A DNA stretch of 64,000 nt from Glutamicibacter uratoxydans. GTDB lineage: Bacteria > Actinomycetota > Actinomycetes > Actinomycetales > Micrococcaceae. The notes beneath the pieces are model-generated. The model ran no database searches, was not told the DNA's origin, and worked only from the letters and a program-made list of their open reading frames with translations. The position numbers were made by a program, and so were the translations under genes. This document shows positions 15,486 to 59,600 of the stretch, piece after piece. Positions within the stretch are counted from its first letter, which is position 1; each line of letters opens with the position of its first letter. The DNA lies in NCBI RefSeq assembly GCF_006539925.1, contig NZ_BJNY01000005.1:161536-225535 (forward strand), given 5' to 3'.

Positions 15486-15705
15486 AGGCCCGACGCCTGC
15501 AGAAGCATGAAAGCGGGTCATATTACGGAACAGAACTTCACGCCGTCATATCCGGCCGGTAGCATCAAAATTGTTGCTTCACGAGACGCGGCGCCAAGCT
15601 CCGACTGGCCGCGCACCAACCCCAGGTTCATGGGTGGTTCGGATGAAGAAGCGGTCCGGGCATCGACCGATGCGCGGGCAAGAGCTCAGCGAGAGTTGTC
15701 GTGTC

Positions 15706-32140: not shown

Positions 32141-32316
32141 GATGCAGTACTTCCTTCTTGAACCGATGGCCGCCATCTGGCATGGTGGGGCTCGCGTTCT
32201 CTGTGGAGAGGTCTAACGCTAGCCTAAAGGATCAGTACGCTCATATGTGCCCGAAGGGCAAAAGATCTTCTGGAGTTCATCTACCCCAAAGCTTCCATTT
32301 ACCCGTTAAATGACGA

Positions 32317-32351
32317 CAGGCCGTTGAACGTCTTCCTCGTTCAACGACCTG
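32317..32351 (-). terminator. Terminator hairpin of the NlpC/P60 gene
   Basis: CAGGCCGTTGAACG at 32317-32330 pairs with CGTTCAACGACCTG at 32338-32351 (one G-T pair). It is placed just past the peptidase stop and is followed on the minus strand by a short A/T stretch rather than a strong T-run. Confidence 0.6.
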
Positions 32352-32369
32352 CGGTCAGAAGCTAAATGC

Positions 32370-33227
32370 TTAGCGAGCCAGGGTGTAGTAACCGTACAGC
32401 GGGTTACGGCTCACCGAGTGGATCATGGTGTCCACGGTTGGGTTCTGTGCACCGATCATCTGACCGTTGCCCAGGTAGATGCCTACGTGGCTTCCGCCGC
32501 GCTGGAATACAAGATCGCCTGGCTTAGGGTTGCTGGTGCGCTTGAACTGGCCGGAACCCAGAATAGCCGAGGTGCCGCGTGCAATGTTGATGCCGTGCTT
32601 GGCATATACGTACTTGACGAAGCCCGAGCAGTCCCAACCGGAAGGAGTGTTACCGCCCCAGACATATGGAACGCCGACGTACTTTGCAGCGGTGGCTGCA
32701 ATGCCGGACAGGTTGCCGGTGTTGACCGAAGACTCAGCCTTGACAGACTTGGTCTGGGTAGTGGTGGTCGACTTGGTCGAAGTCGACTGCTGGCCACGGT
32801 TCGAACGGGTCACAGGAGCGAATGCATCGTCCGAGGAGTTGCTCGACGAGGTGGTTTCGTTCGAGGAAGCCTGGGTGGCGGTCACGTCGTTGGCAACGGC
32901 GATGACTACTGGCTCTGGCTTAGGCTCTGCAGTGAAGCTTGCACGCTGAATGTCAACCGAAGCATCCTTGTCCGCAGCAACGGTAACTGCCTTGACAGCT
33001 ACGCGCTCTGGGTTGATGGTGTCGACTGGCGCAGCGGATACGTCGCGCGATGCGGTGGCCTGTCCTGGGACACCCAGGGTGATGATCAAGCCGGAAGCAG
33101 CAGCAACGACTGCTGCCTGGCGTCCCACAGAGCCGGCATTGTTTGCCACGGCCTGCGAAATTGCTTCTAGCGAGTTAGTACGTGGCACGTCGGCGCGGCG
33201 ACGTCCATGAGCTTGACGCTTGGTCAC
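32370..33227 (-). CDS. Secreted NlpC/P60 (C40) peptidoglycan endopeptidase
   Basis: The 285-residue protein has a basic start and a signal/anchor segment (QAAVVAAASGLIITLGVPGQ), a Ser/Thr-rich linker, and a C-terminal NlpC/P60 domain from about residue 174. Catalytic C200 is in WDCSGFVKYVY and H247 in GGSHVGIYLG. It should cut stem peptides in peptidoglycan like RipA. The start is GTG at 33227, with AAGGAG at the 3' edge of the c-di-AMP riboswitch in front of it. Confidence 0.93.
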   Translation of the reverse strand: MTKRQAHGRRRADVPRTNSLEAISQAVANNAGSVGRQAAVVAAASGLIITLGVPGQATASRDVSAAPVDTINPERVAVKAVTVAADKDASVDIQRASFTAEPKPEPVVIAVANDVTATQASSNETTSSSNSSDDAFAPVTRSNRGQQSTSTKSTTTTQTKSVKAESSVNTGNLSGIAATAAKYVGVPYVWGGNTPSGWDCSGFVKYVYAKHGINIARGTSAILGSGQFKRTSNPKPGDLVFQRGGSHVGIYLGNGQMIGAQNPTVDTMIHSVSRNPLYGYYTLAR

Positions 33228-33243
33228 TATAAGAGCCTCTCCT

Positions 33244-33385
33244 TGATACCTACGAGGTAAGCTGTCGGGTTCGAAGTGGAGTTACCTCGGTGGATTTGAA
33301 GTTTCCTTCTCTTCCACTTCACCCCTAGGGTTGTTAGTTCAAACTAACTACCCGATGTTGGTTCCCCCGCCACTGCCGTACGAGT
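33244..33385 (-). promoter_or_regulatory. c-di-AMP (ydaO-yuaA) riboswitch in front of the NlpC/P60 gene
   Basis: Read on the minus strand, the leader contains the conserved blocks GGCGGGGGAACC, GGGGTGAAG and, near its 3' end, CCCGACAGCTTACCTCGTAG. These are hallmarks of the ydaO motif, which senses cyclic di-AMP and usually turns off downstream genes. In actinobacteria it commonly controls cell-wall hydrolases. AAGGAG of the gene overlaps the 3' end of the motif, so control of translation as well as transcription is possible. Confidence 0.88.
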
Positions 33386-33523
33386 TGTGTATAACTGCAC
33401 ATTGCGTGTTGGCAGTGCTCGGTTCTCACGCAATGTTGCTCAGGGATCCCCTGGCACGCATCTAAGCCTATAGGATGATTTTCGAAATGTCACGTTTTGA
33501 TCACGGAATGGTGACGAAGATCG

Positions 33524-34555
33524 TTATAACCAGCCGGCTGGGTCCTTAAACTGGCCGTCAACGATGACATCGAAGTGCACGTGGCACCCGGTCGAGTTGC
33601 CGGTGGTGCCGCTCAACGCGATCAAATCTCCGCGCTTGACCTTGTCGCCAACCTTGACCAAAACCTTGGTGTTGTGGCTGTAGCCGGTCTCCAGGCCATC
33701 GCCGTGATCAATCATGACGCGGTTGCCAGAGTGGCCGGCCCAGCCGGCGACCGTAACGGTGCCTGAAGCCGCTGCATAAACGTTGGTTCCGCACTGAACA
33801 CCGTAGTCAGTACCGCCATGGATCATGGTGCCCGCACCGGTTGGGTTGTTGCGGTGGCCGAAAGGAGAAGTGATGCGGTTGGACTTCACCGGTCGATCGA
33901 GCAGGCCGGAAGTCGACTTGATCGCGGTGACGCTGCCGCCGGAAGCAGCCATGACTTCTGCAAGCTTTTCTTCGTTGGCAACCTTTGGATTGACATCCGA
34001 GGTCAATGCCGCGCGTTCCACTTCCAAGGAGCCAGCTTCTGGAGCCGTGACATCTACCACAGAAGCGGTTGCGGTGCGTTCTGCAGCGACAGCTACGGAG
34101 CCGTCTTCGGTCGAAGTGCCTGAAAGCTGAGGGGCAAATGCAGCCAATGCCAGACCTGAAACGGCGGCCACTGCTGCGATCTTGTGGCTGAATCCGAGCC
34201 GGGAAGATCCCTGCTTTGTCTTGCGGAGGTTCGAGATGAACTCGACGTTGCCGGAGATCTCTGCCGATTCGGCGGCAACCTTGACGGCTCCAGGAAGTGC
34301 AATGACGTTGCTGTCATTCTCTCCCAGCGCCAGCATCTGGCGGGTAGGAGCGATGCCGTAGCGCTGGCGGGCCTCAAAGCGGCGGCCAACAAAGTTGCTG
34401 TGAACTGGCGCAGCGGCCTCGATGGTTGCCACCGATTCGCTCACGCGCGATGCCCGGCGTCCACCGGAGCGCTCCACGGCGGAAGCGGCAATCTCGCTAA
34501 TCGCGTCTAGTTCAACAACAGCGGCACGTCGGCCGGTCGTCTTGGTTTCGGCCAA
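33524..34555 (-). CDS. Secreted M23-family (LytM) metallopeptidase
   Basis: The 343-residue protein has a membrane/signal segment near residues 125-145 (IAAVAAVSGLALAAFAPQLS) and a C-terminal M23 domain with Zn ligands H246 and D250 (HGGTDYGV) and H327 in CHVHFDV, plus active-site H325. It should cut peptidoglycan cross-links. The start is TTG at 34555 with GAGAGG before it; the ATG three bases further up is out of frame. It lies behind its own c-di-AMP riboswitch. Confidence 0.92.
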   Translation of the reverse strand: MAETKTTGRRAAVVELDAISEIAASAVERSGGRRASRVSESVATIEAAAPVHSNFVGRRFEARQRYGIAPTRQMLALGENDSNVIALPGAVKVAAESAEISGNVEFISNLRKTKQGSSRLGFSHKIAAVAAVSGLALAAFAPQLSGTSTEDGSVAVAAERTATASVVDVTAPEAGSLEVERAALTSDVNPKVANEEKLAEVMAASGGSVTAIKSTSGLLDRPVKSNRITSPFGHRNNPTGAGTMIHGGTDYGVQCGTNVYAAASGTVTVAGWAGHSGNRVMIDHGDGLETGYSHNTKVLVKVGDKVKRGDLIALSGTTGNSTGCHVHFDVIVDGQFKDPAGWL

Positions 34556-34569
34556 AACATTCCTCTCAA

Positions 34570-34690
34570 GTTGCGCCTACGAAGTTAGCTGTCGGATTCG
34601 GCTCCTGAGATTGAGCCGGCCTGCTTCTACGCAAGACTTCACCCCAAGACGTTGCACGTCGTTAAGTGGGTCCCCCGCTATTGCCCTAAA
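34570..34690 (-). promoter_or_regulatory. c-di-AMP (ydaO-yuaA) riboswitch in front of the M23 gene
   Basis: On the minus strand the leader shows AGCGGGGGACCCA, TTGGGGTGAAGTC and CCGACAGCTAACTTCGTAGG, again the ydaO core. It is shorter than the copy in front of the NlpC gene because a peripheral arm is smaller. It ends 10-15 bases before the TTG start. It senses cyclic di-AMP. Confidence 0.88.
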
Positions 34691-34814
34691 AATACTTTTT
34701 CTCATCTTGGCGCAGGGCAATACTAGGCGTATGCGCATAAGGTGAGCCGGAGCTAGATAAACTACTAGCTCCGGTCGTTAACGTTACACGTCACCCCGGA
34801 AAGTTACAATTTCG

Positions 34815-35513
34815 TTATCTTTCCCGAGCTTGGACAAAAACGTGTCCGCTGACCTCCACAGGCAGCTCCAACGCACCCTCAATCCCCTGAACCCGGACGA
34901 CGACATAGTCATCGGCGCGCTCCAAAGTGACAATCGCGCCGGGGCGGATTCCACCTTCATTCAGTTGTCCGAGCAGGATTGGGTCGGTTTGGATCGGCTC
35001 AGCCAAGCGTGCAATCGCCACCGGGCCTTCGACTCCATCAAGCAGCGCCTGGTCGAGGTTCACCACGTCAGATGAGATATCGCTCACTTTCGGCCCGCCG
35101 AGGACTTCGAGGCCCGGAATCGGGTTGCCGTACGGCGAAACAGTGGGCTTGCCCAGCAGATCATAAAGGCGGCGTTCTACGCGCTCACTCATCACATGTT
35201 CCCAGCGGCAGGCTTCTTCGTGGACGTACTCCCAGTCCAATCCGATCATGTCTGCCAGAAGGCGCTCGGCAAGGCGGTGCTTGCGCATCACGCTCGTAGC
35301 CAGTTCGTGGCCCTTTTCGGTCAGGGCAAGATGGCGGTCGGAAGAAACCACCACCAGTCCGTCGCGTTCCATGCGGGCTACGGTCTGGGAAACGGTCGGC
35401 CCGGAGTGGCCAAGACGCTCTGCGATGCGTGCACGCAAGGCCACGATCTCTTCTTCTTGTAGTTCAAGAATGGTACGCAGGTACATCTCGGTTGTATCGA
35501 TAAGGTCTGACAC
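34815..35513 (-). CDS. ideR: Iron-dependent repressor, DtxR/IdeR family
   Basis: The 232-residue protein aligns with DtxR without gaps over the metal sites: M10, C102, E105, H106 (site 2) and H79, E83, H98 (site 1) sit at the same residue numbers. An N-terminal winged helix and a C-terminal SH3-like domain are both present. It represses iron uptake and activates storage when Fe2+ is plentiful. It is a single gene upstream of the hydrolase genes and separated from them by the M23 leader. Confidence 0.9.
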   Translation of the reverse strand: MSDLIDTTEMYLRTILELQEEEIVALRARIAERLGHSGPTVSQTVARMERDGLVVVSSDRHLALTEKGHELATSVMRKHRLAERLLADMIGLDWEYVHEEACRWEHVMSERVERRLYDLLGKPTVSPYGNPIPGLEVLGGPKVSDISSDVVNLDQALLDGVEGPVAIARLAEPIQTDPILLGQLNEGGIRPGAIVTLERADDYVVVRVQGIEGALELPVEVSGHVFVQARER

Positions 35514-59535: not shown

Positions 59536-59600
59536 AGTGTCCCAATTCACTTTCACTATGGATCGTCGGGCACGTACCTGCCCGTGAAAGGATTGTCATT

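What the first reader, a model, noticed from the sequence alone, without database searches (positions are those of the whole stretch)
33244..34690. Two separate c-di-AMP riboswitches, 1.2 kb apart, each controlling a different class of cell-wall hydrolase
Seen: both leaders carry the ydaO core blocks (GGGGGA(A)CC, GGGGTGAAG, CCGACAGCT(A/T)AC) directly before an NlpC/P60 gene and an M23 gene. Known: ydaO senses c-di-AMP, and actinobacterial cell-wall hydrolases are typical targets. Inferred: a cysteine endopeptidase and a zinc endopeptidase are throttled together by one second messenger but with separate switches, and the two leaders differ in arm length, so they may have different thresholds. 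The NlpC ribosome-binding site overlaps the 3' edge of its switch, which allows translational control.
Basis: partly seen in the sequence, partly recalled or inferred. Interest (0 to 1): 0.7.

Follow-up and report, generated by a model that had tools for sequence, protein, structure and literature searches.

The report
Twin c-di-AMP riboswitches with hidden pseudoknot
Two RNA switches of the c-di-AMP family sit directly before two different cell-wall-cutting enzyme genes and are likely to close each gene's ribosome site when c-di-AMP is high; comparison with relatives shows an extra conserved helix that the public Rfam model lacks and that is predicted to form a pseudoknot.

Summary
Rfam RF00379 matches both leaders (68.1 and 62.8 bits, cut-off 38), before an M23 and an NlpC/P60 gene. 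They are the only two matches in the genome, which has one diadenylate-cyclase match. Such switches before actinobacterial wall hydrolases are known; C. glutamicum nlpC is a tested, apparently translational case (PMC9960051). The pair is conserved, and M23 and NlpC aptamers cluster apart.

What looks new lies partly outside the given coordinates. A helix X, absent from the Rfam model, pairs bases 5' of P1 with the P2 loop, crossing P1 and P2. In 40 aligned leaders all 10 X pairs show compensatory changes (0 of 500 shuffles as high); a second genus repeats it more weakly. In the window alone X is clear before nlpC, weak before M23. X, P1 and P2 use different bases; the Shine-Dalgarno lies 4-6 nt past P1. 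I propose a translational OFF switch in which X braces P1. The two switch classes also differ at one core base (A versus C/U). Ligand binding, thresholds and 3D form are untested.

The parts
33232..33401 (-). RF00379 match of the nlpC leader (62.8 bits)
33437..33459 (-). hairpin at the predicted 5' end of the nlpC leader (seen by eye, not tested)
   Evidence: coordinates; relatives show a hairpin-like stretch there
33427..33436 (-). X helix, 5' arm, nlpC leader (ACATTGCGTG)
   Evidence: covariation
33421..33423 (-). P1 5' strand, nlpC leader (ACC)
33411..33417 (-). P2 5' strand, nlpC leader (CACTGCC)
   Evidence: P2 100% paired
33399..33408 (-). X helix, 3' arm, in the P2 loop, nlpC leader (CACGCAATGT)
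33371..33377 (-). P2 3' strand, nlpC leader (GGCAGTG)
33248..33250 (-). P1 3' strand, nlpC leader (GGT)
33236..33243 (-). Shine-Dalgarno of nlpC (AGGAGAGG), 4 nt after P1
   Evidence: sequence
32370..33227 (-). NlpC/P60 gene, 285 aa, GTG start
   Evidence: Pfam PF00877, E 1.9e-24
34558..34722 (-). RF00379 match of the M23 leader (68.1 bits)
34747..34774 (-). hairpin at the predicted 5' end of the M23 leader (seen by eye, not tested)
   Evidence: coordinates
34733..34741 (-). X helix, 5' arm, M23 leader (CTTATGCGC); weak in this sequence taken alone
   Evidence: genus relatives
34724..34729 (-). P1 5' strand, M23 leader (CGCCTA)
34714..34722 (-). P2 5' strand, M23 leader (TATTGCCCT)
34701..34713 (-). 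X helix, 3' arm, M23 leader (GCGC, 4-nt bulge, ATGAG)
34679..34687 (-). P2 3' strand, M23 leader (AGGGCAATA)
34574..34579 (-). P1 3' strand, M23 leader (TAGGCG)
34562..34567 (-). Shine-Dalgarno of the M23 gene (GAGAGG), 6 nt after P1
   Evidence: sequence
33524..34555 (-). M23 peptidase gene, 343 aa, TTG start
   Evidence: Pfam PF01551, E 1.8e-28

Best explanation
These are two old, paralogous riboswitches of the c-di-AMP family, each in its own leader directly before an M23 or an NlpC/P60 hydrolase gene, and each is likely to stop translation of its gene when c-di-AMP rises, helped by an extra helix X that is predicted to form a pseudoknot with P1 and P2. Proposed working: X would fold first as the RNA is made; its 3' arm lies in the P2 loop and its 5' arm ends just before the P1 5' strand. 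When P2 closes, X and P2 would form an H-type pseudoknot that holds the P1 5' strand in a linker of most often 9 nt. Ligand would then lock P1, whose 3' strand ends 4-6 nt before the Shine-Dalgarno, so that the P1/X end of the aptamer blocks the 30S subunit. Shown here: Rfam membership, target genes, conservation of the pair in the genus sample, separate clustering of the two aptamers, covariation of X, P2 and P1 among relatives, disjoint bases of the three helices in the window, place of the ribosome site, lack of a terminator-like site. Inferred: ligand binding, OFF and translational mode (from C. glutamicum nlpC, PMC9960051), X in the window's M23 leader (from relatives), coexistence of X with P1, different thresholds.
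For: RF00379 scores and target genes. All 6 genomes sampled in the genus, own included, have exactly two matches, M23 then NlpC in the 5 fetched plus the window. X: own arms -17.7 versus -12.1 kcal/mol for exchanged arms, n=50, z -13.9, 0 of 5000; 10 of 10 X pairs with both-side changes, 83.5% of X cells paired, all five measures 0 of 500 shuffles; second genus z -7.9, 8 of 10 pairs with both-side changes; named relatives z -8.0, n=21. P2 and P1 also covary. Linkers: X to P2 9 nt in 38 of 75, P2 to X 0-3 nt in 67 of 75. A Shine-Dalgarno-like word at one offset in 47 of 81 leaders and at offsets 11-19 in 80 of 81. No terminator-like site between aptamer and start. C. glutamicum nlpC: reporter protein, not transcript, responds to c-di-AMP.
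Against: No binding or expression data. In the window alone X is not striking by duplex energy (401 and 1106 of 4000 random placements as strong, nlpC and M23); by ungapped helix score nlpC X is reached by 25 of 5000 random placements but M23 X by 1559 of 5000. Own arm is the single best partner in only 7 of 50. 12 of 87 long-P2 sites have no ungapped X of 7 pairs. X is tied to long P2: 80 of 81 family sites but 7 of 69 class-level sites. In the second genus only 69.2% of X cells pair and one of five measures is reached by 47 of 500 shuffles. Streptomyces rpfA is reported as transcriptional. The promoter scan found no sigma-70-like site on this strand, so separate transcripts are not shown. 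P1 of nlpC is only 3 pairs.
Confidence: 0.68

Rival explanations
1. X is an alternative fold and not part of the ligand-bound aptamer: in the free state it holds the P1 and P2 5' strands in its loop and keeps the gene on; ligand shifts the RNA to P1/P2 and off. X is then the switching helix.
For: X is complete before the P2 and P1 3' strands are made, and alone it is a stable hairpin (-12.0 kcal/mol for nlpC, -8.1 for M23).
Against: X, P1 and P2 use disjoint bases in the window, and the linkers are short and steady, which an exclusive alternative does not need.
Confidence: 0.2
2. The switches act on transcription, as reported for Streptomyces rpfA, by non-canonical termination in or after the aptamer.
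For: Reported for S. coelicolor rpfA (PMC10117811 passages); in C. glutamicum the switch sequence lowers transcript whatever the c-di-AMP level.
Against: No terminator-like site between aptamer and start codon; ribosome site at a steady offset from the core; c-di-AMP did not change transcript for C. glutamicum nlpC.
Confidence: 0.15
3. The two switches are redundant copies with the same response, and their differences are drift.
For: Both keep the core blocks and score well; nothing measured shows a difference.
Against: Early separation of the two classes and a class-bound core base.
Confidence: 0.35
4. The X repeat is a DNA operator for a regulator protein and not an RNA helix.
For: It is an inverted repeat shortly after the likely promoter.
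Against: The letters change from genus to genus while pairing, including G-U pairs, is kept and the place relative to P1 and P2 is fixed; an operator would keep letters.
Confidence: 0.04

Closest known systems
c-di-AMP riboswitch, ydaO/yuaA leader (Rfam RF00379)
   Same: Both leaders score far above the cut-off, with the core blocks, P1, P2 and P3.
   Different: Long P2 whose loop pairs back 5' of P1 (X); no X in the Rfam consensus line and, by eye, short P2 hairpins in the Bacillota leaders that I could read.
C. glutamicum cg2402/nlpC riboswitch (PMC9960051; discussion section and passages seen)
   Same: c-di-AMP class switch before an NlpC/P60 gene, no canonical terminator, most likely translational.
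   Different: There one nlpC operon and an rpf1 gene elsewhere; here M23 and NlpC genes side by side, each with a switch. Whether the C. glutamicum leader has X was not examined.
Streptomyces rpfA ydaO-type riboswitch (PMC10117811; passages seen)
   Same: c-di-AMP class switch before a wall hydrolase.
   Different: Reported to end transcription. Most class-level leaders have a short P2; two of the S. bauhiniae leaders read look like the long-P2 type by eye.
Tandem Na+ / c-di-AMP riboswitch of Dehalobacter (PMC9337991; passages seen)
   Same: Two riboswitches close together.
   Different: There two aptamers of different classes in one leader form a logic gate; here each gene has its own leader, with the M23 gene between them.

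Membership tests
c-di-AMP riboswitch RF00379 | Covariance-model score over the gathering cut-off | tested here: met
   68.1 and 62.8 bits against 38
c-di-AMP riboswitch RF00379 | P1 joins the 5' and 3' ends of the aptamer | tested here: met
   Fixed-register P1 pairs own 3.73 of 4 versus 3.34 permuted, n=59, z 7.8; the 5' strand lies further upstream than the Rfam alignment puts it
c-di-AMP riboswitch RF00379 | Binds c-di-AMP | not testable with these tools
   Needs in-line probing; the genome has one diadenylate-cyclase-domain protein
c-di-AMP riboswitch RF00379 | In Actinobacteria precedes cell-wall genes | tested here: met
   M23 and NlpC/P60; rule from PMC9960051 passages
Translational OFF switch like C. 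glutamicum nlpC | Ribosome site at the aptamer's 3' edge and no terminator | tested here: met
Translational OFF switch like C. glutamicum nlpC | Protein, not transcript, falls with c-di-AMP | not testable with these tools
   Needs reporters
H-type pseudoknot (X with P2) | Two crossing helices, both with compensatory changes | tested here: met
   X 10 of 10 pairs, P2 3 of 7 pairs with both-side changes in 40 leaders
H-type pseudoknot (X with P2) | Both helices present at the same time | not testable with these tools
   Only indirect: short, steady linkers and disjoint bases
Tandem riboswitch (two aptamers in one leader) | Both aptamers before the same gene in one leader | tested here: not met
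   The M23 gene lies between them

The most novel reading that the evidence does not exclude
Actinobacteria carry a distinct architectural subclass of the c-di-AMP riboswitch in which the P2 loop reaches back to pair 5' of P1, making a pseudoknotted brace that sits at the ribosome site and takes the place of a separate expression platform; in this family it exists as two paralogous settings, marked by one core base, that give an M23 and an NlpC/P60 hydrolase different c-di-AMP thresholds.
Probability: 0.33. Interest if true: 0.72.

Novelty: new variant of a known kind. Interest (0 to 1): 0.5.

Why it matters
How actinobacterial c-di-AMP switches work is unsettled: translational in C. glutamicum nlpC, transcriptional in Streptomyces rpfA, with no canonical terminator seen in either. 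A covarying helix beside P1 and near the ribosome site, missing from the reference model, gives a concrete part to test. Constructs cut at the Rfam boundary would lose one arm of X and the true P1 5' strand in both leaders. The paired, class-specific switches offer a natural experiment on how one messenger is tuned for two wall hydrolases.

Tried and rejected
Rejected: recent duplication of the two switches; arm length as the basis of different thresholds; another Rfam family over the leaders (none up to E=1); an intrinsic terminator between aptamer and gene (the only terminator-like site on this strand in 32200-35000 lies beyond the nlpC stop); the Rfam placement of the P1 5' strand. My first idea, that the repeat TATTGCCCT/AGGGCAATA of the M23 leader was an anti-P1 helix, was wrong: it is P2. 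The DHHA1 domain (PF02272) gave one match in a 907-aa frame, which I do not take for a c-di-AMP phosphodiesterase, so the degrading enzyme was not identified. The window's species was not identified (the named-genome scan may leave it out).

Limits of the counts: relatives' switches were found by fixed core words, which miss some that Rfam finds (for example L038 2090-2302 and L040 3313-3522). One search gave 82 sites, the window's two included; 81 had a readable core (L090_446 dropped). With 69 class-level sites that makes 150; 96 had a long P2 by rule and 87 were kept as long-P2 type. Of 64 leaders listed after removal of near-copies, 40 went into A1, 20 M23-type into A2 (aligned, pairs not counted) and 4 into neither. 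In A1 the window's own X is out of register by one column and so counts against X. Of 30 loci of genus g46, 29 were readable and 26 distinct; 25 were aligned. The fetched class-level sites came from the best-scoring matches listed. Named relatives: 51 long-P2 sites, 42 with X of 7 or more pairs, 6 sites of other type; some are the same genomes as unnamed ones, so this is not independent. The 20 loci were chosen because they showed pairs. M23/NlpC labels rest on short motifs and a few hand assignments. The short P2 of Bacillota and the long P2 in S. bauhiniae were judged by eye on the output.

Literature: Nelson 2013 and Block 2010 and three crystal-structure papers are not held. That X is not in print rests only on searches of the open library and on passages of PMC7657543.

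Full report
The given observation is right. Both leaders match the Rfam c-di-AMP riboswitch (E 1.1e-13 and 3.6e-12 over the window), no other RNA family matches them up to E=1, and they are the only two matches in the 3.79-Mb genome. The genes that follow are an M23 peptidase and an NlpC/P60 protein. The genome has one diadenylate-cyclase-domain protein. In the genus sample all 6 genomes, own included, have exactly two matches, and in the 5 fetched ones and the window the order is M23, then NlpC. In the family sample 97 of 120 genomes have the class. Of 40 fetched family loci, 20 of them chosen for showing a pair, 33 hold two or three switches.

This much is a new member of a known kind. [quoted passage not shown] glutamicum nlpC switch has been tested: c-di-AMP lowers reporter protein and not transcript (PMC9960051 discussion). 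In Streptomyces rpfA the switch is reported to end transcription (PMC10117811 passages). Here there is no terminator-like site between aptamer and gene, and the Shine-Dalgarno starts 4 nt (nlpC) or 6 nt (M23) after the P1 3' strand. Across 81 family leaders a Shine-Dalgarno-like word starts at one and the same offset in 47, and at offsets 11-19 in 80. A switch that closes the ribosome site is the likely mode.

Reading the bases upstream of the Rfam match led to helix X. In the nlpC leader ACATTGCGTG (33436-33427) pairs with CACGCAATGT (33408-33399). Between them lie the P1 5' strand and the P2 5' strand; the second arm lies in the P2 loop. X thus crosses both P1 and P2. The layout recurs in relatives with quite different letters, for example CTTCGGGCG/CGCCCGAAG in L038 and CTGATCTGG/CCAGATCAG in the M23 leader of L060. 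Own arms pair better than exchanged arms: -17.7 versus -12.1 kcal/mol, n=50, z -13.9, none of 5000 permutations as good. On an alignment of 40 leaders all 10 X pairs have changes on both sides and 83.5% of X cells are paired; sliding the partners by 1-3 columns cuts the paired cells of X and P2 together from 90% to 35-52%. In a genus of another family (g46, whose switch precedes a gene with a transglycosylase-like domain) the permutation test gives z -7.9, n=26, and 8 of 10 X pairs show both-side changes with 69.2% of X cells paired. P2 and P1 covary too. The Rfam consensus line has no X, and a published covariation reanalysis of the Rfam alignment describes, in the passages I saw, only further pairs in known helices (PMC7657543).

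Results against: seen alone, the window's M23 leader has only a bulged X (GCGC/GCGC plus CTTAT/ATGAG); its ungapped helix score is reached by 1559 of 5000 random placements, that of nlpC by 25 of 5000. By duplex energy neither stands out (nlpC 401, M23 1106 of 4000). The own arm is the single best partner in only 7 of 50. Of 87 long-P2 sites 12 had no ungapped X of 7 pairs. X is tied to a long P2: 80 of 81 family sites but 7 of 69 class-level sites, and the Bacillota leaders that I could read have short P2 hairpins by eye. In g46 one of five covariation measures was reached by 47 of 500 shuffles. The case for X in this window thus rests on the relatives.

Does X coexist with P1 and P2? In the window the three helices use disjoint bases. 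In the 75 long-P2 sites with X of at least 7 pairs, the linker from X to P2 is 9 nt in 38, and that from P2 to X is 0-3 nt in 67. Short, steady linkers are what a packed H-type pseudoknot needs and an exclusive alternative fold does not. I therefore favour a brace: X at the outer end of P1, near the ribosome site. This is inference; an alternating fold is the main rival on this point.

Do the two switches differ? They separated early: 21 M23-type aptamers form one starred set, and the M23 label needs 2 changes on the tree against 20.8 in shuffles; the tree has few columns and many open forks. The arm-length argument is weak, as lengths vary within each class. One core base is class-bound: in CAGCU-N-AC M23-type switches have A (23 of 24) and NlpC-type C or U (51 of 52); Bacillota leaders examined have A (18 of 18) and g46 leaders G (30 of 30). 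The window has A for M23 and U for nlpC. Some middle switches of three-switch arrays break the rule (L199, L215). P1 is also longer in M23 (6 pairs by eye and in the fold) than in nlpC (3 pairs). Whether any of this shifts affinity is untested.

Verdict: observation confirmed, interpretation partly supported; the pair itself is an ordinary though well-kept member of a known class, and helix X makes it a new variant of that class as far as the open literature that I could search shows.

Noticed in passing
L038, L050, L058: Some family loci hold three c-di-AMP riboswitches in a row, in L038 before an M23 and then NlpC-type genes.
   Followed up: partly
NlpC-type leaders of L038-L092: Most NlpC-type leaders outside the window's genus share a near-fixed stretch TCCGTTCGCA in the P2 loop after the X 3' arm; its role is unknown and the window's genus lacks it.
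   Followed up: no
window 32370-33227 and 33524-34555; L038, L052, L163: The proteins behind these switches share an N-terminal GR(H/R)R(A/K) motif before a distant hydrophobic stretch, also in the transglycosylase-like protein of g46.
   Followed up: no
window 34558-34560: An out-of-frame ATG sits between the Shine-Dalgarno and the TTG start of the M23 gene, and is kept in genus relatives.
   Followed up: no
window 34815-35513 (-): A DtxR-type regulator gene (Fe_dep_repress domains) lies upstream of the M23 leader; similar 231-252 aa frames precede it in L038 and L052.
   Followed up: no
G449:C12:370864-371180 (L283, L290) and G453:C11:41269-41766 (L293, L300): Two c-di-AMP aptamers directly in tandem, 36 and 151 nt apart, in genomes of Rossellomorea vietnamensis and Paenibacillus sp. 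UNC451MF.
   Followed up: no
window 15577-15690 (+) and 59542-59598 (+): A SAM-IV riboswitch (75.8 bits) and an msiK RNA (55.4 bits).
   Followed up: no
L163-L192: All 30 leaders read in genus g46 have G at the core base that is A in Bacillota.
   Followed up: no
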